This document shows, piece by piece, positions 22,112 to 50,152 of a DNA stretch of 64,000 bases; position 1 is the stretch's first letter; each line of letters opens with the position of its first letter. The translations under genes and the position numbers were made by a program. Source of the DNA: Stappia stellulata (lineage in GTDB: Bacteria; Pseudomonadota; Alphaproteobacteria; Rhizobiales; Stappiaceae); assembly GCF_020176715.1 (NCBI RefSeq), contig NZ_JAIVMF010000017.1:1-64000 (forward strand), given 5' to 3'. A model generated the notes under the pieces. That model had not been told where the DNA came from, searched no databases, and saw only the letters and a list, made by a program, of their open reading frames with translations.

Positions 22112-22203
22112 TTCATTCGTTCCCTCCGCCGGCACGACCCGGATCAGGTTCAGTGGGTTGACGCAGGTTCGCGTCTCTCAGCCCCGAGGGGCACCCCAAC
22201 GAA
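22112..22203 (-). promoter_or_regulatory. TPP riboswitch (THI element)
   Basis: Read on the minus strand, the conserved aptamer parts appear in order: GGGGTGCCC with its pairing partner (about 22199-22181), the CTGAGA T-loop (22176-22181), TGAACCTGATCC (22141-22152) and GGAGGGAAC (22119-22127). These are the pyrimidine- and diphosphate-sensor arms of TPP aptamers. It lies 139 bases upstream of thiD, the first of nine collinear thiamine genes, which it should switch off when TPP is plentiful. Whether it acts on translation or termination was not resolved. Confidence 0.95.
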
Positions 22204-22270
22204 ATCGAAGGCGACGATAGGAGACGTCTGCGGGCGGGTCAAGCGGTGTGAAGGCAGGGCTGCGCTGCAC

Positions 22271-25342: not shown

Positions 25343-25440
25343 CGACGCACCCGTAAAACGCGAAAAACCGAAATCTCTCGCGTTTTACGGCCTGTTGCGC
25401 CTTGCGTCGAGCGCGGGTGCGGCTTTGCCTTAACCCGGCG

Positions 25441-26835: not shown

Positions 26836-27051
26836 GTCCCGGTGTCTCCCCGCGCGCTGTCTTCGATTGCGGGCAAAGCTAAAGCGTTTTCAGGCGCTTG
26901 GAAACACGTGAGACGACTGCCTCAAATTTACGCAGCGTCACATTTGTCGCAATCGCGCAGGGATGCGACGCTGCGACGACGATTGCGCAGCCCTGTCCGT
27001 GCCAGGGCTGGATGCTGAGAAACGCGCGCGAGCGGGACAAGGACGGGTCAC

Positions 27052-28362
27052 ATGTTTCAGGTACTGGCCGGGGTCTGGGCCTTGTTGCTCGGCATCGTCT
27101 TGATCATGCTGGGCAACGGCATGCATTTCACGCTGATCGGCCTGCGCGGCGGCATCGAGGGGTTCTCGGCCGCCGAGCTTGCCATCGTCACCTCCGGCTA
27201 TTTCACCGGGTTTTTGTCGGGCGCGCGCTTCACGCCGGCGCTGATCCGCCGGGTCGGGCATGTGCGCGTCTTCGCGGCGCTGGGCAGTTTCATGTCTGCG
27301 GGGCTGATTTCCTTCCCGCTCTTCACCGACCCCATCGCCTGGACGCTGCTGCGGGTGCTCGTCGGCTTCTGCATGTCAGGGATCTATGTGGCGGCGGAAA
27401 GCTGGCTCAACGACGCCGCCACCAACGAGACCCGCGGCAAGGTGCTTTCGGCCTATATGATCGCCCAGACGCTCGGCATCATCGGGGCGCAGGGGCTGCT
27501 GACGCTGGGCGACGCCGGCACCTCGGTTCTGTTCATCGGCGCCTCGATCCTGGTGTCGATCTCCTTCGCGCCCATTCTCCTGTCGGTCGCCCATGTGCCG
27601 GCTGTCGAGGTCGCGCGGCCGATGTCGCTCAAGGGGCTGTTCGCCAGCTCGCCGCTTGGAACGGTCGGCATTTTCCTGCTCGGCAGCGTCTATGCGACGC
27701 AATCGGGCATGGGCGCGGTGTTCGGCTCGCAGATCGGCATGACCGCCTCGCAGATCGCGCTCTTCGTCGCCATGCTCTTTGCCGGGGCGCTGGTGCTGCA
27801 ATATCCGATCGGCTGGCTGTCGGACCGCATGGACCGGCGCAAGCTGATCTTCGGCGCCTCCTGCCTGGGCGCGGCCGCCTGTCTGCTCGGCTGGCTGACC
27901 GGCGGCGGGCTGACCTCCCTGATGGCGGCCGCCTTTTTCGCAGGCGGGGTGACGACGCCGCTTTATGCGCTGTTTCTCGCTTATACCAACGACACGCTTT
28001 CGGCCGAGGACATGCCGGCGGCCTCGGGCGGGCTCGTCTTCACCTTCGGGCTTGGCGCCATCGTCGGCCCGCTGGCGACCGGCTGGGCGATGGAACGGCT
28101 CGGCCCCTTCGCCTTCTGGCCGGTGCTTGGGGTGACCTTCGCGGCAATCGCGCTCTATGCGCTCTTCCGCATGACGCAGCGCGCCGTCACCCCGAGCGAG
28201 GAGACGGAGAGCTATCTCGGCGTGCTCCCGACCGCTTCGCCGGTCGCAGTGGAAGCCGCCGGCGTCTGGGCGGCGGAAAATGCGGAAGCCGAACGCGAAG
28301 CGGAAGTTGAGGCAGAGGCGAAAGCCGGCGCGGAAGCGGACGCACCGGGTGAAAGCCGCTAG
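27052..28362 (+). CDS. MFS transporter, YcaD-like
   Basis: The 436-residue protein has 12 hydrophobic segments, with the loop 2-3 motif replaced by GARFTPALIRRVGH and loop 8-9 DRMDRRKL. The N-terminal GNGMHFTLIGLRGG and the YVAAESWLND segment near residue 118 are typical of the YcaD-type transporters. About 60 residues at the C-terminus form an unusual Ala/Glu-rich tail (repeats of AEAE/EAEV) likely to be helical and cytoplasmic. The substrate is unknown. Confidence 0.87.
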   Translation: MFQVLAGVWALLLGIVLIMLGNGMHFTLIGLRGGIEGFSAAELAIVTSGYFTGFLSGARFTPALIRRVGHVRVFAALGSFMSAGLISFPLFTDPIAWTLLRVLVGFCMSGIYVAAESWLNDAATNETRGKVLSAYMIAQTLGIIGAQGLLTLGDAGTSVLFIGASILVSISFAPILLSVAHVPAVEVARPMSLKGLFASSPLGTVGIFLLGSVYATQSGMGAVFGSQIGMTASQIALFVAMLFAGALVLQYPIGWLSDRMDRRKLIFGASCLGAAACLLGWLTGGGLTSLMAAAFFAGGVTTPLYALFLAYTNDTLSAEDMPAASGGLVFTFGLGAIVGPLATGWAMERLGPFAFWPVLGVTFAAIALYALFRMTQRAVTPSEETESYLGVLPTASPVAVEAAGVWAAENAEAEREAEVEAEAKAGAEADAPGESR

Positions 28363-28656
28363 AAACAAGGCCCGCGCGCGCCGACCGGACCCGAGCGAAC
28401 CCGCGCCGGCGAGCCTTGCCAGGGCTTTTCCCATCGCATGGAGCCAAGCTTTGCGATGTATCCCCTTCAAGCGGCTTTTGAGGCGCAGAAGGAAACGGAC
28501 CATTGTTCCGCAGCGGAAGCGCAGAAAGGAGCAACCCGCCCGCTCCGGAGTGACTTGCAATCCAAAACGTAAAAACTTATGGTTGCATTTCGCGTGATGA
28601 GGAAATCATATTCGATCACATTGGCTGACCAGTCGCTCATTCGAAGCAATTGTCAA

Positions 28657-29382
28657 ATGAAGTTCGAAGACCTCTATGAGCTTATCCGGCCAATCGCCGA
28701 ATGCGCCTCACACAGCGAAATCCTTGCGCTGACGTCCAATGTTTCCGCAAAGCTCGACTTCGAATTCTACAGTATTGTTATCCGCAGAATTGAAAACCTC
28801 GTTGAAAATAACGTTGTTATCAATCACAATTATCCCGAGGAATGGGAGGAGATTTATCGCACCAGATCCTATTTCTCGAAGGATCCGGCAAACAGCCCCC
28901 TGACGTTCAGCAAGCCGTCCCTGCTCTGGTCGGAGGTTTCCGACACCGAGGTGTTTCGCGCGGCGAAGGAATTCGGCATCGGCGACGGCGTGACCTGCAC
29001 GGTTCGCGGCAGCCACCACATCTGCTCGGTCAGCTTCGCCGTTCGCAAGAAAGACGTTTGCCCGGAAATGATGGTCGGCGCCCAGTTCATCATCCCCTAT
29101 CTTTGCAATTCGGTCATTTGCATAGCGGAGACCGAGCTCGCCACCGCGCCAATCCTCTCCGAGCGCGAGAAAGAGTGCCTCAAGTGGGTGAGCGAAGGAA
29201 AGACGTCATGGGAGACCTCCGTGATCATGTCGATCTCGGAAAGAACCGTGCTGTTTCATCTTTCCAACATACAGAACAAACTGCAGACGACGAGCCGGGC
29301 GCACTCGGTGGCCAAGGCCGCGATCCTGGGCCTTCTGAACGCCGATCTTTTCTCCGGCGACCCCTTCAAGGTTTTGAAGTAG
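28657..29382 (+). CDS. LuxR-family quorum-sensing regulator with autoinducer-binding domain
   Basis: The ATG at 28657 gives 241 residues; an upstream in-frame ATG at 28579 would add 26 residues lacking family character. Residues about 5-160 are the autoinducer-binding domain, with the acyl-HSL contact positions W63, Y67, D76, P77 and W91 all present in the right spacing. Residues about 170-235 are the LuxR helix-turn-helix (LSEREKECLKWVSEGKT, SERTVLFHLSNIQNKL). It stands 3.2 kb before the luxI homolog, with three opposite-strand genes between. Its DNA is markedly less GC-rich than the flanks, suggesting acquisition. Confidence 0.9.
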   Translation: MKFEDLYELIRPIAECASHSEILALTSNVSAKLDFEFYSIVIRRIENLVENNVVINHNYPEEWEEIYRTRSYFSKDPANSPLTFSKPSLLWSEVSDTEVFRAAKEFGIGDGVTCTVRGSHHICSVSFAVRKKDVCPEMMVGAQFIIPYLCNSVICIAETELATAPILSEREKECLKWVSEGKTSWETSVIMSISERTVLFHLSNIQNKLQTTSRAHSVAKAAILGLLNADLFSGDPFKVLK

Positions 29383-29449
29383 CGCGCCTGCCATAGCCGC
29401 GCCGCTCGCGCGCGGCCGGGCGCGGAAGCGGCGCGGGTGCGGGCGGGGG

Positions 29450-30385
29450 TCAATAGACGCCAGTTTTCACCTTGTGGTGGGTGCGCCACCGCCGGATGGC
29501 GATGACGGTCCTGGAGATGCCGCCCTGGCAGATGAAGATGCCGGCCAGCACGACGAAGAACGCGATGCCGGTGTTGGGACCGGGACGTTCGGAGAGAATG
29601 AGAATGCCCCAGAACGCGCCGAACATGGGAACCAGGTAGTTGTTCAACGCCAGGAAGGAGGCGTCGTATTTCTGAAGGATGCGCAGGACGATCAGTTGCG
29701 CCGTCGCCGTCGACAAGAGCCCGAGCACGACAATGGCGCCGATCGCCGACGGCTCGGGCGACAGCGTCCACGGCGTTTCCAGAACCAGCGCCGCCGGCAG
29801 GATGAACGCACTCGCCACAAGCAGGATGGCCGCCGAGGTCTGGAACTTCGGCAGATCCCGAAGGTGACGGCTCAAGATTCCCGACAGGGCGTAGCACAGG
29901 GCGGCGGTGGTCACGAGCAATTGCGCGAGCGTTTGCTGGCCCAGATTCAGCAGCGACGCCGGGCCGATCAGCAAGACCACGCCGACGAAGCCGACCGCAA
30001 CACCTGCGGCCTTTTCGATCGTCAGCCGCTCGTCATCGGTGATGACATGCGCCATGGCGATGGTGAACAGCGGGATCGAGGACATCAGGATCGCCGCAAG
30101 GCTGCTGTCGATATATTGCTCGCCCATGCTGATGAAGGAAAACGGCAGGACGTTGCCGAGGAGCGCGGCGCTGACGATATACACCCAGTGCTTGCCGGGA
30201 GGCGGCAACCGGTAGCCGGCGAGACGCGCCACGACCAGCAGGACGACCGCGGCCAGAGTGATGCGGCTTGCCGCGATGGTCAGCGGCGTCACCGACCCCA
30301 GTCCCACCTTGATGAACAAGAACGAGCTTCCCCAGATCGCGGCGAGCGTGGTCAGCAGCGCCAATCCGTTGAGTGTGTTTCGCAT
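29450..30385 (-). CDS. EamA/DMT-family transporter
   Basis: The ATG at 30385, with AAGGA six bases before it, gives 311 residues with ten hydrophobic segments arranged as two EamA repeats (AIWGSSFLFIKVGLG near residue 15 and its counterpart near 160). These inner-membrane proteins typically export amino acids and metabolites. It is the last gene of the minus-strand unit that starts with the HisG-like gene, and is a good candidate exporter for the cluster product. The gap of 104 bases to the GcvT-like gene contains a CCTGG-CGG-CCAGG hairpin but no T-run. Confidence 0.87.
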   Translation of the reverse strand: MRNTLNGLALLTTLAAIWGSSFLFIKVGLGSVTPLTIAASRITLAAVVLLVVARLAGYRLPPPGKHWVYIVSAALLGNVLPFSFISMGEQYIDSSLAAILMSSIPLFTIAMAHVITDDERLTIEKAAGVAVGFVGVVLLIGPASLLNLGQQTLAQLLVTTAALCYALSGILSRHLRDLPKFQTSAAILLVASAFILPAALVLETPWTLSPEPSAIGAIVVLGLLSTATAQLIVLRILQKYDASFLALNNYLVPMFGAFWGILILSERPGPNTGIAFFVVLAGIFICQGGISRTVIAIRRWRTHHKVKTGVY

Positions 30386-30489
30386 TTTGTTTCCTTTCAT
30401 GGCCTCCGGCCACCGCCTCGCCGTCCGGGGAGTTCGGCACACGCGCACGACACCCTGGCGGCCAGGCGGACGTCTTGCAGGTCACCGCG

Positions 30490-31719
30490 CTAGCCGGCCG
30501 CGCGAACACCGGGCTGGAAAGAAGTCCAGCCCTTGAGCTCAAGCGGGGCATCCGACCCGTCGTCGGTCAGGTGAACGAAGGCGACATGTCTGTCCGCGGC
30601 ATAGGAATAGCCGCAGCTCGAGACATGACCGCGGATGCGCCCGTCGGCGTCCTGAACGGCTTCGCCGATCCGGGGCCGACTGGTCCTGTCGCCGGCAACG
30701 GCCAGTTTGCGGACCGTGATCCGCGGCTCTGCCGCCGGTTCCCGAATGGCCTCGCGACCGACGTAATCCGCCGTCTTTTGGGGATCGACCATCCACCCGA
30801 GGCCGATTTCACCGAGCGTGGTGCCGTAGTTCATGTCGAGCGGGTGAAGCAGGAAGTCGATATCCGTGCATTCGATGCGATAGGTATCGAGCAGGTCCCA
30901 GCCGCAGGGGAGCACCCTGTCCGGCATGTCGAGCATGGCGGTCCAGACGGCGGTGACCGCCTCCGGCATGCCCCACATTTCCATGCCGATGACAGAGCGG
31001 ACGACGGTCACGTCGTCGCCGGCGTTCGTGCGACAACGACAGGCCTGAAAGGGTTTGAGCGCGTCGACGGCGGCCCGGTCGGCGGCGCAGACAAGATCGC
31101 GCATCACGGCAATGCGGTCCGGTCCCTTGATGTTGAAGCTGACGAAATCGGAATCCACGACCCGCGCATCGGGAAAGCGTTCAAGCGCCTCGTGCAGATG
31201 GGAGGGGGGCGCGCCGCCGCCACAGGAGACCAGATAGCGGTCCTCCTCGACCCTCAGCACCAAGGCCTCCTCGTCGACCGTTCCCGTCGGCGTGGTGAAA
31301 AGGGTGAAAGCGGCGCGGCCTGTCTTGAGCGACCGCAGATTGCGCGGCGTCAGGTAATCGAGAACGTCGAGCGCCTGGGGGCCCGACACCTCGAGATACA
31401 TCATGCCGGAGGCAATGAAGGCGCCCGCCCGAGAGTTGACATAGTCGTGCTGGCGTTTCGTGGGGAGCCGCGCCCAGCCGCCGGCACCGATCACATTGCC
31501 TGCAAGAACCCGCAGGCCGTGATGCGGGCCGTAGCGCGCCGCGACGAGCTCGATGATATCCATCAGGTGTTTCTTGGGCTTCAGGCAAGGCTGTTCGCCA
31601 GACACAAGGCCCGAGTCCGCCGGAATGGTGAAATAGGGCGGCAGGTTCATCGACAGCGGATTGGTCCGCCCTGCGGCTGTGGTCTCAAGCGTGGATGAAG
31701 GGTGAATTGCGACGTTCAT
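30490..31719 (-). CDS. GcvT-like aminomethyltransferase-family protein
   Basis: The 409-residue protein has the folate-binding fold of glycine-cleavage T-protein and its relatives: the N-terminal half carries a catalytic-site-like SGPQALDVLDYLTPRN, the middle WDLLDTYRIECTDIDFLLHPLD corresponds to the GcvT region with the folate-contacting glutamate and its flanks, and the C-terminus carries the barrel with GHVSSCGYSYAADRHVAF. It lacks the P, H and L partners, so it is unlikely to be part of glycine cleavage. It is the second gene behind the HisG-like gene (16-base gap). Demethylation of an N-methyl substrate with the DAO-type flavoenzyme of the cluster is one possibility. Confidence 0.78.
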   Translation of the reverse strand: MNVAIHPSSTLETTAAGRTNPLSMNLPPYFTIPADSGLVSGEQPCLKPKKHLMDIIELVAARYGPHHGLRVLAGNVIGAGGWARLPTKRQHDYVNSRAGAFIASGMMYLEVSGPQALDVLDYLTPRNLRSLKTGRAAFTLFTTPTGTVDEEALVLRVEEDRYLVSCGGGAPPSHLHEALERFPDARVVDSDFVSFNIKGPDRIAVMRDLVCAADRAAVDALKPFQACRCRTNAGDDVTVVRSVIGMEMWGMPEAVTAVWTAMLDMPDRVLPCGWDLLDTYRIECTDIDFLLHPLDMNYGTTLGEIGLGWMVDPQKTADYVGREAIREPAAEPRITVRKLAVAGDRTSRPRIGEAVQDADGRIRGHVSSCGYSYAADRHVAFVHLTDDGSDAPLELKGWTSFQPGVRAAG

Positions 31720-31735
31720 CGGAGGTCTCCCGGTC

Positions 31736-32422
31736 CTAGAGAATGGCTTCTTCGCTCATCGCCGGCGCAGACCGACGAAGGGAATGCGGGGCGTCGAGGA
31801 TGTGGCTCAAGAGGTCGTGGCATCGCTGCCGCCTGGCACCCGTCGTGCGATGACTGATCAACGCGATCGCACCGGTCTTCTGGATGACCTCGAGCTCGCG
31901 CAGATTGTTGCGGGCGATCGTTGCTCCGGTATCGACGATATCGACCACGAAATGCGCCATGCCAGCGAGCAGCGCCAGTTCGACGGATCCGTACATTTTG
32001 ACGATGTCGGGGGCACAGCCTTGCCGTTCGAAGTATTCGCGGGCGATCCGCGGATATTTCGTCGCCACACGCGGCCGACGAATGTAGGTCCGGCTGACGA
32101 ATGCGCCGGGAAGACCGATCACCGACAGCCGACACTTGCAAATGTCCAGATCGCGCTTGCTGCCGAAGGACAGGTTTGCCGCTTCCGCGATCACATCGCC
32201 GCCAAGCACCGCGATGTCCAGGACCCCTTCCTCCAGCAAGAGAGGAATATCGGAGGACCGCACCGGACACAGGGTCAGATCCGCCCGGCTGGTGTCCGCG
32301 AAAATCGCCCTTTCGTCCTTTCGCGAGATCGACAGGTCGATCCCGCAGCGATTGAAGAGCCGCCTCGTGTCGTTCATGACACGCCCTTTCGGCACGCCCA
32401 GAATCAGCTTGTCGGTTTTCAT
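31736..32422 (-). CDS. HisG-like ATP phosphoribosyltransferase paralog (short form)
   Basis: The ATG at 32422, with GGGGGAG seven bases upstream, gives 228 residues. The HisG catalytic fold is clear: VPKGR at 10-14, SRKDERAIF at 33-41, ATKYPRIAREYF at 120-131, GSVELA at 145-150 and the PRPP-loop DIVDTGAT at 161-168. The length is that of short HisG, which normally needs the regulatory partner HisZ, but no hisZ or other histidine gene is near. It leads an operon with the GcvT-like and EamA genes, behind a lux-box-like palindrome. A phosphoribosyl transfer in secondary metabolism is inferred; the acceptor is unknown. Confidence 0.85.
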   Translation of the reverse strand: MKTDKLILGVPKGRVMNDTRRLFNRCGIDLSISRKDERAIFADTSRADLTLCPVRSSDIPLLLEEGVLDIAVLGGDVIAEAANLSFGSKRDLDICKCRLSVIGLPGAFVSRTYIRRPRVATKYPRIAREYFERQGCAPDIVKMYGSVELALLAGMAHFVVDIVDTGATIARNNLRELEVIQKTGAIALISHRTTGARRQRCHDLLSHILDAPHSLRRSAPAMSEEAIL

Positions 32423-32477
32423 GAAGCTGCTCCCCCCGTCCGTTCCGCTTCGTGGCATTGGGTCAATTGTGGTGACC

Positions 32478-32483
32478 ATCCTA
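32478..32483 (-). promoter_or_regulatory. -10-like hexamer downstream of lux box 1 (hisG-like operon)
   Basis: On the minus strand TAGGAT (32483-32478) matches the -10 consensus at four of six positions and lies 21 bases beyond the lux-box-like palindrome. That is the spacing seen in class-II LuxR-activated promoters, where the box overlaps the -35 region. It would start a transcript about 45-50 bases before the HisG-like ATG at 32422. Confidence 0.45.
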
Positions 32484-32504
32484 CGCACCCGGCTTGCCGG
32501 GCTC

Positions 32505-32524
32505 TGCTGTAGGAACCAACAGGT
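32505..32524. promoter_or_regulatory. Lux-box-like palindrome 1
   Basis: The 20-mer has the lux-box layout CTGT-N8-ACAG (CTGT at 32507-32510, ACAG at 32519-32522) and agrees with the classical Vibrio lux box at 15 of 20 positions. It is centred in the 195-base divergent gap between the HisG-like gene and luxI. It shares the core GTAGGAACC-N-ACAGGT with the inverse of the second site at 39560. A LuxR dimer binding here could act on both directions; a -10-like hexamer is clear only toward the HisG-like gene. Confidence 0.7.
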
Positions 32525-32617
32525 TCCGGGAGGACCATGCTGTCGGATCAGCCAGTTGCTGGAAAGTGCAGTAAATTTAAGAATTGTCCCATCACTTTAT
32601 CGGGAGGGGATGGTTTG

Positions 32618-33175
32618 ATGTTTATAAAGGCAGAATATTTCAAAAATACTTCATGCGATGAAAAGGACCTCGAAAAAATTTATCGCATTCGCAAGGATGT
32701 TTTCTTCGATCGACTCGGATGGAATGTCCTGTGCTCTGGCGGGCTTGAGTTCGATGCTTTCGACAATGCCGACTGCGACTATCTCGTCGTCAGGCACCAA
32801 GACACGCTGATTTGCACGTGCCGGCTCATTCCGACCACGCGCCCGACAATGCTGTCGGAGGTGTTTCCCGGCCTCTTGCGCGGGGAAGACTATCTGCCGG
32901 ATCCAGCCGTGATCGAAATCAGCCGTCTCGCGGCAACCGCCTGCCCGTCGCTGCGCGGAGGGGTCATGTCCCTGATCCTGCAGGAGTTGCGCCGCTACGC
33001 CAGCGACCACCGCGTCAGCGCGTTCGTCTTCGTGACCACGACCGCCATCGAACGGCTGCTGCGCCGGCACGGCGTTCGCCTCCAGCGGTTCGGCGACGGC
33101 AGGACGACCCTGGTCGGCGGCGTGCGGTCGGTGGCCCTCAGACTTCACCCGGCCGACATTCCGCAGGTCAACTGA
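32618..33175 (+). CDS. Acyl-homoserine-lactone synthase (LuxI family)
   Basis: The ATG at 32618 is preceded by GGGAGGGG at eight bases and gives 185 residues. All signature residues of LuxI synthases are present: R25, F29 and W35 in the N-terminal loop, E44-x-D46-x2-D49, R69, F83, E100 and R103. The enzyme makes an acyl-HSL signal from S-adenosylmethionine and an acyl carrier. The first ~60 codons are much less GC-rich than the rest, which suggests acquisition. It is followed after 179 bases by the DAO-type flavoenzyme on the same strand. Confidence 0.93.
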   Translation: MFIKAEYFKNTSCDEKDLEKIYRIRKDVFFDRLGWNVLCSGGLEFDAFDNADCDYLVVRHQDTLICTCRLIPTTRPTMLSEVFPGLLRGEDYLPDPAVIEISRLAATACPSLRGGVMSLILQELRRYASDHRVSAFVFVTTTAIERLLRRHGVRLQRFGDGRTTLVGGVRSVALRLHPADIPQVN

Positions 33176-33354
33176 CCAGCGACCGACCGGATGGCGAAGC
33201 CGCGGGCCGGCGGACGACACCGTCGAAACGATCGCTCGGGGAGCGGGCCCTGCGCCCGCCCCCGGCGCGTCGGCGTCCCGGGCTCGCCGGCGCAGCCGCG
33301 CGCACCGCCTCGCATGCGCGCCGCACAAGCCCCCCTCGCGCAAGGAGACAGGCA

Positions 33355-34611
33355 ATGCAACCTTCCCAGCACCCGACCATCCCGTCCAGCACCGAAGTCT
33401 GTATTGTCGGCGCCGGCATTGTCGGGATCCTCTGCGCCCTCGAACTGGTCGAGCGCGGCCACCGGGTGGTGTGCCTCGAGAAAGACCGGGTCGGCTGGGC
33501 CCAATCCGGTCGCAATCTGGGCTGGATCCGGCAGCAGGGACGCGATCCAGCCGAGCTGCCGCTGATGGTGGAGGCCTGCAGGCTCTGGAAGGAGCTCGGC
33601 GAGCGATGCGGGTCCGCCGCGCTCGCCTTCGAGGAGACCGGCATCAACTATCTCGGCCTTCACCCGTCGGATGCGCAGCGATACGAGACCTTCGCCGCAG
33701 CGCTCGAGGCACATGGCGTTCGACCCGAGAGGCTCGACCGCAGGCGGATCGCGCAGCTTTACCCCCTGCCCGAACAACGCTGGCAATACGGGCTCCGCAC
33801 GCCGGGCGACGGGCGGGTCGCGCCTGCCTTTGCCGCGCCCGCGATTGCCAACGCCGTTCTGGAAAAGGGCGGGCGCATCTTCGAGACCTGTGCCGTTCGC
33901 TCGATTGACCCCGGGGGCGACGGCCGCGTCCGGATCGAGACGGACCTGGGAGATCTCACCGCGGAACGCGTCGTCATCGCGTCGGGCGCGGGATCGGCAA
34001 GCCTTGCCGCCGGCGCCGCAGCCCGCCTGCCGCAATTGTGCGTGGAATCGACCGTGACCGAAGTCTTTGATCCGTCAAACCTGTGGCGGGGATCGGGAAC
34101 AGACGGCGTCCTGGCCTTCTATCGCACGGCGCAAGGCCATGTCGGCCTCAGCCTGTGCAAGGGCTTCGTGCACCGGGTCGGGCCGCAGACCTTGCGTCAT
34201 CTCGGCCACTATGCGCGCTCGCTGCGAAGCTGCCTGCAAATGGCGCGCCTGGCGTTGCCCCGCAAGGGCAGTGGCGACGTCAACCCCGCCCCGTCCCGCA
34301 AGGTCGTGCGCGACAGCATGAGCGCCGCGCGTCAGCGCGGGCTGATCGGCCCAAACGCCCGCGTCCGGCGGTGCTGGGCCGGATCCATCGATCTCCTGCC
34401 GGACTTCCTGCCGGTCCTCGACACGCCCCATGCAGGCGGGTCGGTCTTTGTCGCCACGGGCTTCAGCGGCCACGGCTTCGGCATCGCTCCGGCGGTCGCG
34501 CGCGTCGTCGGACACTGGGCCGGCGGCCGCGCACAGCCGCACGACCTGACACGATTTCGGTTCAACCGCTTCTTCGACCGTTCGCCGCTCGCCCAGGGGC
34601 CGACCTTCTAG
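33355..34611 (+). CDS. DAO-family FAD-dependent oxidoreductase
   Basis: The ATG at 33355 has AAGGAG seven bases upstream and gives 418 residues. A dinucleotide-binding GAGIVGILCALELVERGH starts at residue 19, and C-terminal GFSGHGFGIAP near 372 is the usual FAD-contact motif of the D-amino acid/sarcosine oxidase family. SGRNLGWIRQQG near 55 resembles the L-2-hydroxyglutarate/D-amino-acid branch. It oxidises a C-N or C-OH bond of some amino or hydroxy acid. It is downstream of luxI on the same strand and convergent with the PurD-like gene, and it may act with the GcvT-like protein. Confidence 0.83.
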   Translation: MQPSQHPTIPSSTEVCIVGAGIVGILCALELVERGHRVVCLEKDRVGWAQSGRNLGWIRQQGRDPAELPLMVEACRLWKELGERCGSAALAFEETGINYLGLHPSDAQRYETFAAALEAHGVRPERLDRRRIAQLYPLPEQRWQYGLRTPGDGRVAPAFAAPAIANAVLEKGGRIFETCAVRSIDPGGDGRVRIETDLGDLTAERVVIASGAGSASLAAGAAARLPQLCVESTVTEVFDPSNLWRGSGTDGVLAFYRTAQGHVGLSLCKGFVHRVGPQTLRHLGHYARSLRSCLQMARLALPRKGSGDVNPAPSRKVVRDSMSAARQRGLIGPNARVRRCWAGSIDLLPDFLPVLDTPHAGGSVFVATGFSGHGFGIAPAVARVVGHWAGGRAQPHDLTRFRFNRFFDRSPLAQGPTF

Positions 34612-34714
34612 GACGTGGCGCGCCCCAGCCCATTCGCGGGCCATTAACGGACCGGACGGCGGGAAGACCCGACCGGCCGCAGGCCAGTCGGGGTCCGTCA
34701 TGCGGTCCTCGACG

Positions 34715-36037
34715 TCACGCGCCGATGTCCGTGCGCCACCGTTTGCCCTGAAAGCACACGGATTGGATCGAGGCGTAGACGCGGTCGCGGGCTTCGCGGA
34801 TGCTGCCGCCAAGCGCAGAAATATGGGCAACGCGGCCAGCGCGGGTCCGCAGGCTGCTGTCGGCGGACTGCTCGACCCCCGCCCAGAACACCATGGCTTT
34901 GTCCGCCAGCAGAGCCGGGAAGAACCTCACGATCTCTCCGCTTCCGATATCGCGGAACGGCCAGTCCGTCTCCCGGTCGAGCTCCGCCTGATCCTTCAGG
35001 GCGGATTTCGCTCCCGCCGAAAGGGTAATGGTGACGCAGGAGCGGGGCTTGACCTTCAGCCGGCGCTCGACGCGTTCGCCCGAGGTCATGCGCATCAAAA
35101 GCGCGAACAGGTCCTCGTCCACACGGGGAAAAATGGTCTGGCTTTCCGAATCCCCCAGCCGGGTGTTGATTTCCAGAAGATGAGGGCGCCCGTCCGCATC
35201 GATCCGAAGGCCAAGATAGATCGGCCCGCTGTAGGATATGCCGCGCGCGCGCAGTCCCTTGAGCACCGGCTTGAGAATGCTGTTGGCGATCGTCTGGCTC
35301 AGCGCCGGCGAATCCATCATGTGGGGCGAGAGGCTGCCCATGCCGTCGCAATTGGCACCGCCGTCGGCGTCATGGCTTTTCTTGAAGTCCTGGGCGGACG
35401 GCAACTCGACGATGCTTCGACCCTGGACGAAGTAATGCGCCGAATAATCGACGCCGGGCAGGTAGTCCTCGGCGAGCACCTTGAAGGGCGCCCCGGGGTT
35501 TTGCGCGATCACCGCGTCGATCTGCGCAAGCACGTCCTGCGGCCGGGTCCCGGCCGGCACCGGGATCGCGCCATTGCCGTTGCGCGTCAACCAGTCGACC
35601 TTGACCATCTTCGGCAGATTGGACGGGTCGGACAGGAACGCGCCCAGCGCCGCCCGATCCTCAAACAGACGCGCCCGCGGTGTCGGCACGCCGTTTTCGC
35701 GGCAGACCTCCTTGCAGAACCATTTGCTGCTTTCGAGCCGGGCGGCCTTGCTCGACGCGCCGAAGACGCGAAAGCCGCGCTGCCTCAGCTCATCGGCGAT
35801 CCCGTCGTCGAGCGCTTCGATGTGCGAGACGAACACAAGGTCCGGCCGCAAGTCCTCGCAGGCGGCAATGACCGAGCGGAAATCATCGATTCGCGGCGCA
35901 CGCGCAATCCTTTCGCCAAGGATCCCGCCGGTCCCTGGAAGATAGTGGACCTTCACCGTCCTGGAATTGGCAACGAGGGCCGCACAGATGCTGTGCCCGC
36001 GTCCCGTTTTGTCGACAACCACCACAGTATGGGTCAT
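34715..36037 (-). CDS. PurD-like ATP-grasp ligase
   Basis: The ATG at 36037 with AAGGA upstream gives 440 residues that align along their length with phosphoribosylamine-glycine ligase (PurD). Recognisable blocks are FGASSKAARLESSK (92-105), AQDFKK (215-220), DGMGSLSP (231-238), GPIYLGL (271-277), the Mg-binding EINTRLGDSESQ (289-300), and the C-terminal GRVAHISALGGSIREAR with a final DIG. The usual glycine-rich ATP loop KADGLAAGKG is changed to KVDWLTRNGNG (146-156), and the N-terminal GGREHA is absent. It is the last gene of the ectB-like operon. An amide-forming ligase with altered specificity is likely. Confidence 0.82.
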   Translation of the reverse strand: MTHTVVVVDKTGRGHSICAALVANSRTVKVHYLPGTGGILGERIARAPRIDDFRSVIAACEDLRPDLVFVSHIEALDDGIADELRQRGFRVFGASSKAARLESSKWFCKEVCRENGVPTPRARLFEDRAALGAFLSDPSNLPKMVKVDWLTRNGNGAIPVPAGTRPQDVLAQIDAVIAQNPGAPFKVLAEDYLPGVDYSAHYFVQGRSIVELPSAQDFKKSHDADGGANCDGMGSLSPHMMDSPALSQTIANSILKPVLKGLRARGISYSGPIYLGLRIDADGRPHLLEINTRLGDSESQTIFPRVDEDLFALLMRMTSGERVERRLKVKPRSCVTITLSAGAKSALKDQAELDRETDWPFRDIGSGEIVRFFPALLADKAMVFWAGVEQSADSSLRTRAGRVAHISALGGSIREARDRVYASIQSVCFQGKRWRTDIGA

Positions 36038-36102
36038 GGATTTTCCTTCCTGGAAAGTGAGAGGCGGGACGATCCCGGCTCCAGGTGTCAAGGGACGCCC
36101 CG

Positions 36103-37224
36103 TCACGCCGTCACGGTCCTGGCGGTCGCGCGAAAGGAATTTTCCCGAAGGTTGCATTCGCCCAAATGCGCCGGGAGCCCGCCCCAGACTTCCGAAAACC
36201 GGTCCGGCGTCCGGCCAACATATCCAGGACGTTCCGCCGAGGAATTCGGCCAGTCGCAGTTGGGGGCAATGTGGTGCAGGTCATGGTGCACCGTGTCGCC
36301 GACGACGACGAACAACCGCGCGGGCATGTGGATCGACACCGCCCTGATCCACCACGGGATCCAGGCAACGAACGTGTTTCGCTCCGGCGCCTTGCAACAG
36401 CACACGCGGGTGAAACTCAGGAAGTCCTTCTTCTCCCGGTCGCGGATGGTCTGGTTGGAAAACGCCCACCACCGGTGCTTGCTGGCCGTGTAGAGAAAGT
36501 TGGAAATCTGGAAGCCGATCGTCAGCGGCAGCAGCCAGAAGAGCCCGAGCGCGACGTAATAAGCGGACCCGAGGAAAACCCCCGGCAGCGCCAGAGCCGC
36601 GAGATAGGCCCAGGACAATGCGAGCCGATAGAGCGGACGCGCATCGATGAAATTCGCCCTGAGCCTTTCGGCCAGGAACCGGACATGAAAGACCGGCGAC
36701 AGACAGATCAGGACGATCCGGCGGCACAGGCGACCGCGACTTTCCTCCAGTCCCAGCCCCGCGTTGCGCAGGAACAGGACATCCGCGTCGTCTTCAAAGC
36801 ACGGCGCCCGGTGGTGCATGAGATGGGATTTCTGGTTCTCGCGAAACGGCGTTCGCAGGAGCAGTGTCGTCAGAACCTCCCCCAGCACATGATTGGCAAG
36901 GGGCGTTTTCAGCACCTTGTAGTGAAGCGTCTGGTGGATGACGAGAACGTCCAGGCGTCGCATTCCGCCGGAGACGAAACAAAAGCCGAGCATGTAGACC
37001 AGGCCGCCGCCGATCCCCCCCAGAGAGAGCGCAAGGCCGATCAGGGCGAAGCCGGCAACAATCGAGGCGACGCCGATCCCGACGACCTCCACCGGCGACA
37101 GCGGCCGGGCGGCCGGATCACGCGAGCCGCGAATGCCGCTGAGCCAGGTCACGAAAGACTGGACCCCCGGCGGCAATCGGTGCGCCAGTTCCTCGCGGGC
37201 GGGAGACAGATAGGTCGACGTCAT
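36103..37224 (-). CDS. Membrane di-iron desaturase/hydroxylase-like protein
   Basis: The ATG at 37224 (GGGAGGG eight bases upstream) gives 373 residues with four to five hydrophobic segments and the three histidine boxes of membrane di-iron fatty-acid desaturases and related hydroxylases: HQTLH (97-101), HLMHH (134-138) and HHDLHH (313-318). It sits between the 2OG oxygenase (19-base gap) and the PurD-like gene (65-base gap). In this setting it may desaturate or hydroxylate the cluster product rather than membrane lipids, which is inference. Confidence 0.82.
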   Translation of the reverse strand: MTSTYLSPAREELAHRLPPGVQSFVTWLSGIRGSRDPAARPLSPVEVVGIGVASIVAGFALIGLALSLGGIGGGLVYMLGFCFVSGGMRRLDVLVIHQTLHYKVLKTPLANHVLGEVLTTLLLRTPFRENQKSHLMHHRAPCFEDDADVLFLRNAGLGLEESRGRLCRRIVLICLSPVFHVRFLAERLRANFIDARPLYRLALSWAYLAALALPGVFLGSAYYVALGLFWLLPLTIGFQISNFLYTASKHRWWAFSNQTIRDREKKDFLSFTRVCCCKAPERNTFVAWIPWWIRAVSIHMPARLFVVVGDTVHHDLHHIAPNCDWPNSSAERPGYVGRTPDRFSEVWGGLPAHLGECNLRENSFRATARTVTA

Positions 37225-37243
37225 CTCGTGAACCCTCCCGGCC

Positions 37244-37990
37244 TCAGCTGGCGAACAGCACATCGTTGGTTTCGTGCGTCATCTCCGCCGCCAGGTCGCG
37301 CTCGTTCGCCCAGGTCATGTTGACGATCAGCCGCTCGCCGCCGCGGGCGATCGGCGTGACGCGGTGAAGGTATTTCTGGGCATTGAGGAGATAGGCGTCC
37401 GCCGCGTCGCAGCGGTGCGTGTGGATCGCCCCGCTCAGGAGCGTTTCGTTGACCTTCGGATTTTCCTTGTCCCAGCTTCCACCGCCACATAGCTGCAAGA
37501 AGCCGCCCTGGGCGACGTCCGGCGCCTTGAGATAGAGGACGAAGGCAAAGGAGTAGTCATCCCAGTGCCAACCGTGGGTATCGCCGTCGCGGAAGAGGTT
37601 GCTGAGCACATATTCCTCCGGGGGCCACGGGACGCGGTGGACCGTCTCTCCGGTGATCGCAGTCAGAAACCCGCGCACCGCCTCGCACGCATAGATCCGG
37701 GGGATGAAGAGGCTCTTTTCCCTGAGGATGTGCTGGCCGACGGTGCGCATCCGGCGCGGCGTGTCGCCGGTGCTCTTCATGGTCAGGTGCTTGTTGCGCC
37801 CGCTGGTCGAGCTGATCCCCTCGCACTCCCGCGTGATCGCGCGATGCAACGCGGACGGCAGGAAGTGCGGGATGCGCACGAAGCCGTTTGCGAGAAAGTC
37901 GGCCCTGAAACGCGCGACCTCGGCCTCGCTGTACCGGTCGATCCTGTCGCGAAGGGGCACGAGTGGATCAATATCGCCTTGATAAGTCAT
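37244..37990 (-). CDS. 2-oxoglutarate/Fe(II)-dependent oxygenase
   Basis: The ATG at 37990 follows GGAGGA at seven bases and gives 248 residues. The iron ligands appear as H142-W-D144 and H209, with R220 placed to bind 2-oxoglutarate. Because the acidic ligand D144 is kept, hydroxylation is more likely than halogenation; related amino-acid halogenases have Gly or Ala at that position. It lies 17 bases after the EctB-like gene, suggesting that it acts on a diaminobutyrate-type amino acid or its derivative. Confidence 0.82.
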   Translation of the reverse strand: MTYQGDIDPLVPLRDRIDRYSEAEVARFRADFLANGFVRIPHFLPSALHRAITRECEGISSTSGRNKHLTMKSTGDTPRRMRTVGQHILREKSLFIPRIYACEAVRGFLTAITGETVHRVPWPPEEYVLSNLFRDGDTHGWHWDDYSFAFVLYLKAPDVAQGGFLQLCGGGSWDKENPKVNETLLSGAIHTHRCDAADAYLLNAQKYLHRVTPIARGGERLIVNMTWANERDLAAEMTHETNDVLFAS

Positions 37991-38007
37991 GAAATGTCCT
38001 CCGCTGT

Positions 38008-39312
38008 TCAATGGATGCTTGCCAGGCGCGCGGGTCCCGCGCAGGTCGCTGCGACGCAGCGTTTGAGAACCGCAAGCCCGTGAGAAAGGTCGCCGTCGTC
38101 GATGGTGAGCGGGGGAAGGAGCTTCACGACCGTCTCGTCCGGCCCGCAGGTTTCCAGGATCAGCCGGTTGTGGAAGCAAAGCTCGCGGATCTGCGCCGCC
38201 CGTTTGCCGTCGCGCACGTCGAGACCCTGCATCATGCCGGCTCCCTTGCGCATGCCGCCATAGTCAGCGGCCATGGCATCGAGCGCATGTGTGACCAGGC
38301 CCCCCTTGCGGACCACCTCCGACGCGAACAGGGCGTCGGACCAATAGGCCTCCAGGGTGGCGGCCGCCGTCACGAAGGCGAGGTTGTTGCCGCGGAAGGT
38401 GCCATTGTGCTCGCCCGGCTTCCAGGCATCCCATTGCGGCGCGATCATGAGCATGGCCAACGGCTGCCCGAAACCGGAAAGCGATTTCGACAGCACGACG
38501 ATGTCCGGCTGAAGGCCCGCATGCTCGAAGGAAAAGAAGGTTCCCAGCCGACCGCATCCGGCCTGGATATCGTCGACGATCACCAGCACGCCATGATCCG
38601 AGGCGATCCGGCGAATGCGGCGCAACCACGCGGCGCTGGCACGGTTCAACCCGCCCTCGCCCTGCACCGTCTCAAGGATGATGGCCGCCGGCTTGTCGAC
38701 CCCGGACGATCCGTCCGCCAGGAGTTTTTCCACAATATCGGCCGTATCGACGTCCGCGCCGAGGTAGCCGTCATAGGGCAGACGGGTCACCTGGTTGAGC
38801 AGTGCCGAGGAACTTGAGCGATGGTGGGCGTTCGCGGTGAGCGACAGCGCGCCCTGCGTGCAGCCGTGGAAAGCGTTGGTAAAGGCAATGACATTGGTGC
38901 GGCCGGTGACCTTGCGCGCCAGCTTGACGGCTGCCTCGACCGCATTCGCACCCGTCGGCCCGGGAAACTGAAGTTTGTAGTCGAGGTTTCGCGGGATCAT
39001 GATCCGGAGGCGAAACAGATCCATGAAGGCCGCTTTCGACACCGTTTCCATGTCGAGCGACATGGAGATGCCATCGTCTTCAAGGTAGCGGGTCAGACGG
39101 TGTCGCAGCAGCGGATTGTTGTGCCCGTAGTTGAGCGCGCCGCACCCGGCGAGAAAATCCAGATACCGCTCGCCCCCGTCCGTCTCGAGAATGCTGCCGG
39201 CGGCACGGGCAAAGGTCGCGGGAAAGCTGCGACAATAGGAGCGAACCTCGGATTCCAGGCCGGTCACGGCGACGACCTTCGTATCCGAAAGCGGAGGCTG
39301 TATGTGTTTCAT
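38008..39312 (-). CDS. EctB-like diaminobutyrate-2-oxoglutarate aminotransferase
   Basis: The 434-residue class-III PLP aminotransferase matches EctB throughout: ESEVRSYCRSFP near residue 20, AGCGALNYGHNNP at 55-67, LDYKLQFPGPTGANAVEAA near 110, VDDIQAGCGR at 246-255, and the PLP lysine K276 in LSKSLSG, with GEHNGTFRG following. EctB makes 2,4-diaminobutyrate from aspartate semialdehyde. No ectA or ectC is near, so this is not an ectoine operon. It is the first of four collinear genes and has a lux-box-like site 248 bases upstream. Confidence 0.9.
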   Translation of the reverse strand: MKHIQPPLSDTKVVAVTGLESEVRSYCRSFPATFARAAGSILETDGGERYLDFLAGCGALNYGHNNPLLRHRLTRYLEDDGISMSLDMETVSKAAFMDLFRLRIMIPRNLDYKLQFPGPTGANAVEAAVKLARKVTGRTNVIAFTNAFHGCTQGALSLTANAHHRSSSSALLNQVTRLPYDGYLGADVDTADIVEKLLADGSSGVDKPAAIILETVQGEGGLNRASAAWLRRIRRIASDHGVLVIVDDIQAGCGRLGTFFSFEHAGLQPDIVVLSKSLSGFGQPLAMLMIAPQWDAWKPGEHNGTFRGNNLAFVTAAATLEAYWSDALFASEVVRKGGLVTHALDAMAADYGGMRKGAGMMQGLDVRDGKRAAQIRELCFHNRLILETCGPDETVVKLLPPLTIDDGDLSHGLAVLKRCVAATCAGPARLASIH

Positions 39313-39559
39313 GGTTCAAAGTCCCGATCATCATTCACCTGGAGGCGGACACCCAGGAAGGATCTCTGACAAGGCGCGCCTGCACTTCTCATCCGGCGAA
39401 GCCCGCTTAAGGACAAGAAGAAACACATGATCGTGGAGCGCAGAATTTGAACACCCTCACGATTTACATCACGCCTACATGATTCTCACTTTTACAAAAC
39501 TGATTAACCTGCTGAAAAACTATGACCCTATCTGAATACACAGATTGCCCGACCCGATA
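39313..39559 (-). other. Long AT-rich leader of the ectB-like operon
   Basis: This 247-base stretch between the EctB-like start and lux box 2 has no gene. Bases 39420-39550 are clearly less GC-rich than the surroundings and carry a -10-like TGTATT on the minus strand at 39540-39535, 19 bases beyond the lux box. If used, it would give a leader of about 215 bases. No known riboswitch pattern was recognised. Confidence 0.5.
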
Positions 39560-39579
39560 ACCTGTCGGTTCCTACGGGT
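39560..39579. promoter_or_regulatory. Lux-box-like palindrome 2
   Basis: The 20-mer starts ACCTGT and ends ACGGGT, is strongly palindromic, and agrees with the classical lux box at 16 of 20 positions. Its reverse complement matches lux box 1 at 16 of 20 positions, with the identical stretch GTAGGAACC. A -10-like hexamer follows about 20 bases downstream on the minus strand, toward the ectB-like operon. The bases from 39580 to 39917 hold no recognised gene. Confidence 0.72.
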
Positions 39580-39917
39580 GACGATCAAGGGGACATGAAA
39601 AATCGAAAACCCGGCTCGGTCGGGAGGGAAATCGCGGGGGAAATCGCAAGAGCGCGACACCGCTGAAGCCGGAGCGGACGTGCAGGATCATGGCCGGTGC
39701 AAAGGGCGCCTGACTCCATCCCGTCTCCGACGGCGTGCGCAGTGGCGCGGTTGCCGACCACAGCGGCACCGGATCAAACGCAACGCGGCGGGCTATTCAA
39801 AGGAAATGGCGCGCCGCACCGGGTGAAGGTGACATCTGGGTGTGAAGTCTCGAGAGGTTGTTCATCCGGTTCGGGATTAGGCTGCAATCGCCAAACTCCA
39901 GCCGAGGATCCCGAAAG

Positions 39918-40607
39918 ATGAACAACCCGCACCAAGGTGCCCGCCTGACCGTCTATAGTCGAGAGCAGATCGTGGCCCGTGCCCCCGCCCGCGTGGCGGG
40001 GCGTCTGCCCGATCGCCTGGTCGCGCTCGCCCTGCATCTGCGGCGCGACCTGCGCCTGACGGGGGCGGCGATCGCGGCCAGGCTCGTCTTCATTGACGAG
40101 ACCGGCCTTAATACGAAGATGGATCGGCTGCGTGAACGATCGCTGAGGGGAGGACGTGGCCGGGCGGTAGTGCCGCACGGCCACTGCAAACGACGACCTT
40201 CACCGGAGCCTTGCGCCTGACCGGCCTGACGGCCCCGATGGTCCTCGACGGTGCCATGAACGGTTTGGCTTTCCTGGCCTATGTCGAGCAGGTCCTTGTG
40301 CCGACGCTGTCACGCGGCGACATCGTCGTGATGGACAATCTGCCGGCCCACAAGGCTGCCGGGGTCCGGGAAGCCATTGAAAACGTCGGTGCCGAGCTGC
40401 GCTATCTGCCGCCCTAAAGTCCCGATTTCAAACCGATCGAGACCGCGTTTTCGAAACTCAAGGCGCTGTTGCGCGCCAAGACGGAGCGTACGGTCAACGT
40501 CTAGTGGAACTCCGTTGGCGACCTCTGCGCCCATTTCAAACCACGCGAATGCGCAAACTACTTTGCTGCAGCTGGATATGAACCAACACAAAACGGATAT
40601 GCTCTAG
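39918..40607 (+). pseudogene. IS630-type transposase remnant
   Basis: The ATG at 39918 opens an N-terminal helix-turn-helix part (MNNPHQGARLTVYSREQIV) that jumps straight to RLVFIDETGLNTKM, the first DDE aspartate, with the usual intervening ~60 residues missing. A frameshift near 40190-40210 moves the reading to another frame ([18 protein letters not shown], then [18 protein letters not shown]). Two in-frame stops then interrupt SPDFKPIETAFSKLKALL and the C-terminal end. The element is therefore inactive. Terminal inverted repeats were not found. It borders the quorum-sensing cluster. Confidence 0.82.
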
Positions 40608-43364: not shown

Positions 43365-43452
43365 GTCATGAACCCGTAATCGCTGTTGCCCTTCGGCAGA
43401 AAGGATTTCCGCCTGTTTCCGAAGAGCCTAGAGAGACAGCCAGCCACCCTCA

Positions 43453-43468
43453 TCGTCCGTCAGGACGA
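43453..43468. promoter_or_regulatory. Candidate operator of the steroid cluster, site 1
   Basis: TCGTCC-GTCA-GGACGA is a perfect inverted repeat (arms extend to seven bases as ATCGTCC/GGACGAT). It lies between maoC and ipdA, 89 bases upstream of the ipdA start. A near-identical site is at 62485-62500 before another operon of the cluster. Confidence 0.6.
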
Positions 43469-43485
43469 TACCGGGCGGCAAACTT

Positions 43486-43947: not shown

Positions 43948-43962
43948 GCGAGCGCTCTCCCC

Positions 43963-46659: not shown

Positions 46660-46724
46660 CTCCACCGCCTCATACCCTTGTTCCCCCACGCGTTCTCACT
46701 GCCGAGCCCTATCGGACCGCAAGG

Positions 46725-50124: not shown

Positions 50125-50152
50125 TGGTTTCGATTTCACAAGGGTGAGGGCG

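What the first reader, a model, noticed from the sequence alone, without database searches (positions are those of the whole stretch)
28657..39579. Quorum-sensing-linked biosynthetic cluster built from HisG-, PurD- and EctB-type paralogs
Seen directly: a LuxR receptor, a LuxI synthase and eight further genes in three transcription units (hisG-like/gcvT-like/eamA; luxI/DAO oxidase; ectB-like/2OG oxygenase/di-iron desaturase/purD-like). Established: HisG and PurD handle PRPP-derived substrates, EctB makes 2,4-diaminobutyrate, and EamA proteins export metabolites. I know of no described pathway that joins a HisG paralog with a PurD paralog under LuxR/LuxI control. Inference: the cluster makes a diffusible small molecule, perhaps an oxidised diaminobutyrate linked to a ribosyl or amine group, at high cell density.
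Basis: partly seen in the sequence, partly recalled or inferred. Interest (0 to 1): 0.92.

Follow-up and report, generated by a model that had tools for sequence, protein, structure and literature searches.

The report
Quorum-linked diaminobutyrate ligase gene cluster
A bacterium probably switches on, by cell-density signalling, a small set of genes copied from amino-acid and purine metabolism that likely builds an unknown exported small molecule; its four central enzymes recur together in distant bacteria, so they look like an undescribed biosynthetic unit.

Summary
In detail: ten intact genes in three apparent operons, with LuxR and LuxI. A lux-box-like site (16 of 17 bases identical) lies between hisG and luxI and upstream of ectB; its exact 14-base core occurs nowhere else in the window. 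The HisG-, PurD- and EctB-type genes are second copies; canonical hisG (beside hisZ), purD and ectB lie elsewhere in the genome.

The interpretation needs correcting. What recurs outside this lineage is not HisG+PurD but four genes: ectB, a BesD/HalD-family 2OG enzyme (HxD as in hydroxylases, not HxG), a di-iron hydroxylase/desaturase, and a PurD-type ATP-grasp ligase. They lie together in 7 genomes of 6 lineages (Alpha-, Gammaproteobacteria, Streptomycetaceae). Among these 7, the HisG-, GcvT-, DAO- and LuxI-type genes were found only in the window and its 95%-identical relative. The PurD-like proteins form one clade (100/100) with changed motifs; in rhizobia they sit near ectB or ectoine synthase.

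Best reading: a quorum-controlled specialised-metabolite cluster whose module makes an oxidised diaminobutyrate-derived amide, exported by EamA. Product, enzyme order and HisG role are unproven. A HisG-like enzyme in natural-product biosynthesis is already known (pentostatin). Ten searches of open papers listed no description of this module.

The parts
28657..29382 (+). luxR-type autoinducer receptor, 241 aa
   Evidence: Autoind_bind 60.7 bits and GerE 65.9 bits, both over cut-off
29450..30385 (-). eamA-type exporter, 311 aa, third gene of the hisG unit
   Evidence: EamA, two stretches, 129.6 bits
30490..31719 (-). gcvT-like folate-binding protein, 409 aa
   Evidence: GCV_T 85.2 bits; best plasmid relative 36.9% over 94% of the protein, in Salmonella
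31736..32422 (-). hisG-like short-form ATP phosphoribosyltransferase paralog, 228 aa
   Evidence: TIGR00070 146.1 bits, cut-off 75.75; catalytic residues kept by alignment to 5m8h
32509..32525 (+). lux-box-like site GTAGGAACCAACAGGTT in the divergent hisG/luxI promoter region
   Evidence: kept in L010
32618..33175 (+). luxI-type acyl-homoserine-lactone synthase, 185 aa
   Evidence: Autoind_synth 95.7 bits, cut-off 24 (run from an upstream start; the ATG at 32618 was used)
33355..34611 (+). DAO-family FAD amine/amino-acid oxidase, 418 aa
   Evidence: DAO 189.9 bits
34715..36037 (-). purD-like ATP-grasp ligase of a non-canonical clade, 440 aa (core)
   Evidence: GARS_A/N/C; below purD cut-off; motif switches; tree
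36103..37224 (-). His-box di-iron hydroxylase/desaturase, 373 aa (core)
   Evidence: FA_desaturase 41 bits, cut-off 29.7; remote match to arginine hydroxylase GntB; histidines of three boxes invariant in 4 aligned rows, window included
37244..37990 (-). BesD/HalD-family Fe(II)/2OG enzyme with HxD triad, 248 aa (core)
   Evidence: PF23169 260.8 bits; HWD in 7 of 7 core proteins, this one included
38008..39312 (-). ectB-like diaminobutyrate aminotransferase, 434 aa (core)
   Evidence: TIGR02407 595.6 bits, cut-off 552.2; PDB 9s1q, 6rl5
39559..39575 (-). lux-box-like site GTAGGAACCGACAGGTT (minus strand) upstream of ectB
   Evidence: kept in L010

Best explanation
A horizontally acquired, acyl-homoserine-lactone-controlled specialised-metabolite cluster around a four-enzyme module. 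Shown: gene content, shared lux-box-like sites, recurrence of the module, intact motifs. Inferred: LuxI makes an acyl-homoserine lactone; LuxR with it activates the divergent hisG/luxI promoters and the ectB promoter. EctB makes 2,4-diaminobutyrate from aspartate semialdehyde. The HxD BesD/HalD-family enzyme and the di-iron enzyme oxidise free diaminobutyrate or its partner. The PurD-like ATP-grasp ligase, derived from but probably no longer a glycinamide ribonucleotide synthetase, activates a carboxylate as acyl phosphate and forms an amide, most likely with diaminobutyrate or its oxidised form as one partner. EamA exports the product. The HisG-, GcvT- and DAO-type proteins are additions of this lineage, for tailoring or self-protection. 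My split of confidence: quorum-controlled specialised cluster 0.8; four genes one functional module 0.85; oxidised diaminobutyrate amide 0.5; any one specific role for the HisG-like protein under 0.25.
For: Protein identity to the window is 31-66% in the 5 distant loci. PurD-like clade: 10 of 10 on one branch, 100/100, against 7 canonical; E14G, V157A, T230C, G231D, P297S and Y359W are fixed in 10 of 10 and found in 0 of 7 canonical, and column 342 is Gly in 10 of 10 and a gap in 7 of 7. Diaminobutyrate link: among the 3 rhizobial members, ectB is adjacent in Mesorhizobium AR07 and about 6 kb away in S. mexicanum, and ectoine synthase follows directly in S. mexicanum and M. kowhaii; the S. mexicanum GNAT matches no EctA model at E<=1e-8, which fits the ligase standing where EctA would act. 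Regulation. Recent gain: the desaturase and the gcvT-like gene are absent from the 3 of 3 same-genus genomes listed. Peptide context: the S. termitum, G1468 and G1651 loci add ATP-grasp ligases; in G1468 HalD is fused behind an ATP-grasp domain.
Against: No product, expression or enzyme data. The lux sites in L010 are not independent evidence (95% DNA identity), and one unrelated pair of gaps reaches 15 of 17. The HisG, GcvT, DAO and LuxI types were not found with the core in the 5 distant loci, so their place in the same pathway rests on regulation and position. In the genome of L010, a MAG, the PurD profile found only the PurD-like gene and no canonical purD at 1e-20, so a purine role there is not excluded; the MAG may be incomplete. 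The desaturase profile has no solved sequence relative and its predicted model was poor (pLDDT 43). Which substrates the PurD-like ligase couples cannot be read from sequence; SHI is exact in 7 of 10 (MHI, SHV, ANI in the others) and G1468 lacks Asp 9. L012 is masked outside 8 kb; the M. kowhaii locus showed no ectB in 21 kb.
Confidence: 0.55

Rival explanations
1. HisG-like and PurD-like act in one phosphoribosyl pathway: HisG-like transfers phosphoribose from PRPP to an acceptor and the PurD-like ligase joins the resulting phosphoribosyl amine to an oxidised diaminobutyrate.
For: HisG-like keeps residues aligned with PaHisGS R32, R56, C115, E163 and D179 (roles from passages of PMC9734150; a one-residue chain offset is assumed). 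PurD-like keeps G-R-x-H of the N-terminal motif in 10 of 10. An NAD(+) diphosphatase-type NUDIX gene, over cut-off, lies between desaturase and purD-like in L012 and just upstream of a ligase gene in S. termitum, so nucleotides may matter elsewhere too.
Against: HisG-like was found in 2 of 7 core loci; the G660 and S. termitum genomes hold one HisG match each (32% and 24%), the gamma MAG none at 1e-5. NUDIX relatives were found in 2 of 7 loci. The GPE and GREH motifs of canonical PurD are changed.
Confidence: 0.12
2. HisG-like is a self-protection copy: the product inhibits ATP phosphoribosyltransferase or mimics histidine, and a divergent HisG outside normal HisZ control keeps histidine synthesis running; EamA in the same operon exports the product.
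For: A second copy with its catalytic residues in one apparent operon with an exporter, next to a lux-box-like site; the housekeeping hisG sits beside hisZ; no hisZ among the ten genes; HisG-like is not part of the recurring core.
Against: No target or product is known; the gcvT-like gene between the two is unexplained; no HisG-like copy was found at the other core loci, which would need protection too.
Confidence: 0.18
3. An ectoine-like osmolyte or an amino-acid breakdown operon under quorum control rather than a signalling or defence metabolite.
For: EctB is over the ectoine cut-off; DAO- and GcvT-type proteins often serve amine breakdown (recalled); rhizobial relatives keep ectoine synthase.
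Against: No ectA or ectC among the ten genes; two oxygenases plus a ligase and an exporter point to synthesis; 1 of 2,000 ectoine clusters is reported as LuxR-associated (PMC5872303, results section part 1 read).
Confidence: 0.1
4. The purD-like gene is a plain spare GAR synthetase and the neighbours are chance company.
For: All three GARS domains are present; the S. mexicanum relative is annotated purD; no canonical purD was found in the L010 MAG.
Against: Below the purD cut-off of 288 here (267) and in G660 (265); canonical purD scores 537 in the same genome; separate clade and fixed switches; recurring neighbours.
Confidence: 0.03

Closest known systems
Ectoine biosynthesis (EctB)
   Same: Diaminobutyrate aminotransferase over the ectB cut-off; rhizobial relatives of the PurD-like clade sit with ectoine synthase
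   Different: No EctA or EctC among the ten genes; an ATP-grasp ligase and two oxygenases instead; another ectB over cut-off is elsewhere in the genome
BesD/HalD free-amino-acid Fe(II)/2OG halogenases and lysine hydroxylase (PDB 6nie, 7u6i, 7jsd)
   Same: Same Pfam family PF23169; about 220 residues alignable
   Different: HxD triad as in hydroxylases (PMC13244439, passages); below the BesD cut-off (150 of 450); substrate unknown
GAR synthetase PurD
   Same: ATP-grasp, N and C domains; 37 columns invariant in both sets
   Different: Separate clade, changed motifs, second copy, different neighbours
HisG short-form ATP phosphoribosyltransferase; PenA of the pentostatin cluster
   Same: Family and catalytic residues; a HisG homologue in specialised metabolism is precedent
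   Different: No SAICAR-synthase-like or SDR partner as in pen; not conserved with the core; PenA itself was not compared by sequence
luxR-linked biosynthetic clusters of Proteobacteria (PMC5872303)
   Same: LuxR and LuxI genes inside a compact biosynthetic cluster
   Different: Not NRPS or PKS; built of copied primary-metabolism enzymes
GntB arginine hydroxylase of guanitoxin biosynthesis
   Same: Remote sequence match; by its model name it hydroxylates a free amino acid
   Different: 30.9 bits against a cut-off of 380

Membership tests
LuxI/LuxR quorum sensing | Autoinducer synthase, and autoinducer-binding plus GerE domains | tested here: met
   95.7, 60.7 and 65.9 bits, over cut-offs
LuxI/LuxR quorum sensing | Shared operator sites bound by LuxR at target promoters | tested here: inconclusive
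   Two near-identical 17-mers; binding not testable; none within 2 mismatches near luxR
Ectoine cluster | ectA and ectC beside ectB | tested here: not met
   Neither among the ten genes
BesD-type amino-acid halogenase | Gly in place of the Asp/Glu iron ligand (HxG) | tested here: not met
   HWD in 7 of 7 core proteins
HalD/BesD superfamily (PF23169) | Family score over gathering cut-off | tested here: met
   260.8 bits, cut-off 26
GAR synthetase (PurD equivalog) | TIGR00877 cut-off 288 bits | tested here: not met
   267 bits; 267.9 on the genome
GAR synthetase (PurD equivalog) | Motifs REH (7 of 7 canonical), GPE (6 of 7), NTGGM (7 of 7), GDPE (7 of 7) | tested here: not met
   RGH, SHI, NCDGM, GDSE in the window protein
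HisG ATP phosphoribosyltransferase | TIGR00070 cut-off and catalytic residues | tested here: met
   146.1 bits, cut-off 75.75; residues by alignment
HisG ATP phosphoribosyltransferase | ATP as acceptor | not testable with these tools
   Needs an assay
Pentostatin-type cluster | HisG-like, SDR and SAICAR-synthase-like genes together | tested here: not met
   Only the HisG-like one among the ten
Histidine/purine housekeeping | The only hisG and purD of the genome | tested here: not met
   Other copies over cut-off elsewhere

The most novel reading that the evidence does not exclude
The PurD-like clade is an undescribed family of ATP-grasp ligases that uses diaminobutyrate (or its oxidised form) where GAR synthetase uses glycine or phosphoribosylamine, and the module makes a new class of compound, perhaps an amino-acyl ribonucleotide in lineages that add HisG-like or NAD-diphosphatase-type enzymes, spread between Proteobacteria and Streptomycetaceae.
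Probability: 0.25. Interest if true: 0.82.

Novelty: new variant of a known kind. Interest (0 to 1): 0.62.

Why it matters
The five-gene version in G660 (ectB, halD, desaturase, eamA, purD-like) is small enough to express whole in a laboratory host, so an unknown compound and a probably neofunctionalised PurD clade become directly testable. The clade signature (GRGH, NCDGM, GDSE) is a simple genome-mining handle; at least one public record labels such a ligase purD, which would mislead metabolic reconstruction. The lux-box-like sites predict how the window cluster could be switched on.

Tried and rejected
HisG as core gene: rejected, found in 2 of 7 core loci. Halogenation: rejected, HxD in 7 of 7. 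Plasmid HisG hits: 15 of 81 records were listed; the one opened, Erwinia, is an ordinary his operon. Desaturase relatives on plasmids and in G510, G641, G305, G813, G1058 and G862 lack ectB, halD and purD-like by tblastn; the G510 contig is only 5.5 kb, so its neighbourhood is cut. GcvT-like: its best plasmid relative (Salmonella) has no hisG-like match within 10 kb and follows a long open frame that I took, from memory of the family, to be a Tn3-type transposase; no match in the 278 other genomes sampled from the order at 1e-60. Viral contigs gave no relative of GcvT-like or HisG-like. Phages: 25 records with HisG matches, the 5 listed at 30-34%. The AlphaFold2 model of the desaturase was too poor to search. 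Guesses at specific antibiotics from memory were dropped as untestable here. An ATP-grasp/HalD fusion in G1651, noted in the notebook, was withdrawn on recheck: the two matches lie in different frames; the G1468 fusion stands. In one search two canonical PurD rows were in the wrong frame; one search replaces it.

Literature: ten searches (five of them aimed at the module) over an open PMC library. None of the titles and abstract starts listed describes ectB + HalD + desaturase + PurD-like together; several lists were capped (e.g. 12 of 51) and most subscription papers are not held. Five papers were opened, all in part: PMC5872303 (abstract, results part 1), PMC12648386 (passages), PMC13244439 (passages), PMC9734150 (passages), PMC10187165 (a term search that found nothing).


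Full report
What is there. Ten intact genes fill 28657-39312. Families were tested with Pfam and NCBIfam: LuxR, EamA, GcvT-like, HisG-like (short form), LuxI, DAO oxidase, PurD-like, His-box desaturase/hydroxylase, BesD/HalD-family 2OG enzyme and EctB. Strand and gaps suggest hisG-gcvT-eamA, luxI-DAO and ectB-halD-desaturase-purD units (inference). The genome is 4.55 Mb in 58 contigs; the closest named relative found is a 'Rhodobacteraceae bacterium' MAG, L010, collinear from 24834 to 39781 at about 95% DNA identity apart from a break at 28302-28435.

Paralogs. The genome has a second hisG (C10, 183 bits) beside hisZ, a canonical purD (C44, 537 bits) and a second EctB over cut-off (C1, 604.8 bits). 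In the L010 genome, a MAG, only the PurD-like gene was found at 1e-20.

Regulation. GGAACCNACAGGTT occurs exactly twice in 64 kb, in the hisG|luxI gap and upstream of ectB, against 0 in 100 shuffles. The pattern was chosen after seeing the sites. Comparing the two gaps without a preset pattern gives 16 of 17 identical, against at most 14 in 60 shuffles; of 21 gap pairs it is the best, the next reaching 15. Both sites persist in L010, which is too close to be independent. One divergent site could serve hisG and luxI. That these are LuxR operators is inference; no match within 2 mismatches lies near luxR.

Recurrence of the core. One scan of the genome collection with a three-row PurD-like alignment gave 43 pattern matches, 6 relatives and 5 loci; L013 is the same record as L005 and is not counted twice. 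Desaturase searches in sampled genomes: 1 of 297 in the order at 1e-10, the window itself; 5 of 385 in the class at 1e-25, of which 2 (window, G660) carry the core; 4 of 394 in the class of S. termitum at 1e-40, of which 1, the seed itself, carries the core; 1 of 369 in the class of L012 at 1e-40, the seed itself; 1 of 9 in the order of G660 at 1e-70, itself; 3 of 249 in the family of S. termitum at 1e-70, all with the core, one being the seed. The core is rare but spread over two phyla. halD, desaturase and purD-like keep the same order in all 7 genomes, with eamA (G660) or a NUDIX gene (L012) inserted before purD-like. HisG-, GcvT-, DAO-like genes and luxI were found in 2 of 7 (window, L010; tblastn at 1e-4, for G1468 and G1651 at 1e-8); EamA in 4 of 7 by tblastn or Pfam (window, L010, L020, L012). 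The stretches read were 8 kb (L012, rest masked), 13.9 kb (L020), 21 kb (L010), and 31, 46 and 38 kb (G1468, G1651, S. termitum). The first refutation test is thus passed for four genes and failed, in this sample, for hisG and luxI.

The PurD-like clade. Ten PurD-like sequences (window, L010, L020, L011, L012, G1468, G1651 and three rhizobia) lie on one branch with 100/100 support against seven canonical PurDs (the gamma canonical row has a long branch). Six positions switch completely between the sets (E14G, V157A, T230C, G231D, P297S, Y359W), a seventh column is a gap in canonical PurD, and GPE (6 of 7) becomes SHI (7 of 10; MHI, SHV and ANI in the others). Thirty-seven columns are invariant in both sets in the 8+7 comparison, so an active ATP-grasp ligase is likely while its substrate has probably changed. 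In Mesorhizobium AR07 ectB is adjacent, in S. mexicanum about 6 kb away; ectoine synthase follows directly in S. mexicanum and M. kowhaii; the S. mexicanum GNAT matches no EctA model at 1e-8. This company is my main reason for placing diaminobutyrate among the ligase's substrates. It is inference.

The oxygenases. All seven HalD-type proteins of the core loci carry HWD, with the iron-binding carboxylate of hydroxylases; BesD has Gly there (PMC13244439, passages). The window protein's best solved relatives are halogenase B, a lysine halogenase, halogenase D, BesD and a lysine hydroxylase. The desaturase keeps the histidines of three boxes across 4 rows (that these are iron-binding boxes is recalled) but has no solved sequence relative at 0.01 and no usable model.

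HisG-like. It aligns with PaHisGS so that R32 (KGR), R56, C115, E163 and D179 are kept and K57 is Ala (roles from passages of PMC9734150; a one-residue chain offset is assumed). It is 27% identical to the genome's own HisG. It should be an active phosphoribosyltransferase; whether for ATP is unknown. Use of a HisG homologue in a natural product is precedent: PenA in pentostatin (PMC12648386, passages). Self-protection and tailoring are both open.

Streptomycetaceae and gamma context. S. termitum adds two L-amino-acid-ligase-type ATP-grasp genes, a third ATP-grasp gene, a class II tRNA-synthetase-like gene, a glutamate-synthase-like gene, a B12-binding and a methylaspartate-mutase E gene, and a NUDIX gene; G1468 and G1651 add ATP-grasp genes and a rhodanese-like domain. 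In G1468 an ATP-grasp domain and HalD share one open frame; in G1651 the two matches lie in different frames. L012 shows the start of the third ATP-grasp type before the mask. This suggests that the core supplies an unusual amino acid or amide that some lineages build into peptides (inference).

Verdict. Observation confirmed; interpretation partly right. The interesting object is the four-gene module and its PurD-like ligase, not a HisG/PurD pathway. I place it as a new variant of a known kind (quorum-linked clusters, here built from copied primary enzymes). Interest 0.62: a specialist would want the product, and the five-gene operon makes that testable, but no chemistry is shown.

Noticed in passing
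window 42486-53287: Next to the cluster lies what looks like a steroid (HIP) ring-degradation set: CoA transferase (42486-43364), PRK07938 enoyl-CoA hydratase over cut-off, FabK-like reductase, SDR, two-domain acyl-CoA dehydrogenase and FadD3-family ligase over cut-off. The pathway name is recalled.
   Followed up: partly
window 40070-40607: Probable remnant of an IS630-type transposase beside the ectB end of the cluster; 90.5% identical to a stretch on a Roseibium aggregatum plasmid, a more distant match being annotated IS630.
   Followed up: partly
window 22104-22208: TPP riboswitch on the minus strand, 77.1 bits.
   Followed up: no
L063 895-3036: HalD-type hydroxylase in one open frame behind an ATP-grasp_4 domain in G1468; in G1651 the same two domains lie in different frames.
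   Followed up: partly
L012 9012-9986; L031 9214-10326: NAD(+) diphosphatase-type NUDIX genes over cut-off inside the gamma core and just upstream of the S. termitum ligase genes.
   Followed up: partly
L062 7466-8524: Adenosine deaminase gene about 3.5 kb from ectB of the G1468 cluster; possibly chance.
   Followed up: no
L004 11983-21018; L005 10429-13407; L014 9989-11872: Rhizobial loci pairing the PurD-like clade with ectB and/or ectoine synthase, in S. mexicanum also with an aspartate-kinase-like and a carnitine-dehydrogenase-like gene: apparently a second type of cluster.
   Followed up: partly
L068 9986-11203: Relative (36.9% over 94% of the protein) of the GcvT-like protein on a Salmonella plasmid, with a recombinase gene some 3 kb upstream.
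   Followed up: partly
G679 (genome of L010): The PurD profile found only the PurD-like gene and no canonical purD at 1e-20 in this MAG; incompleteness not checked.
   Followed up: no
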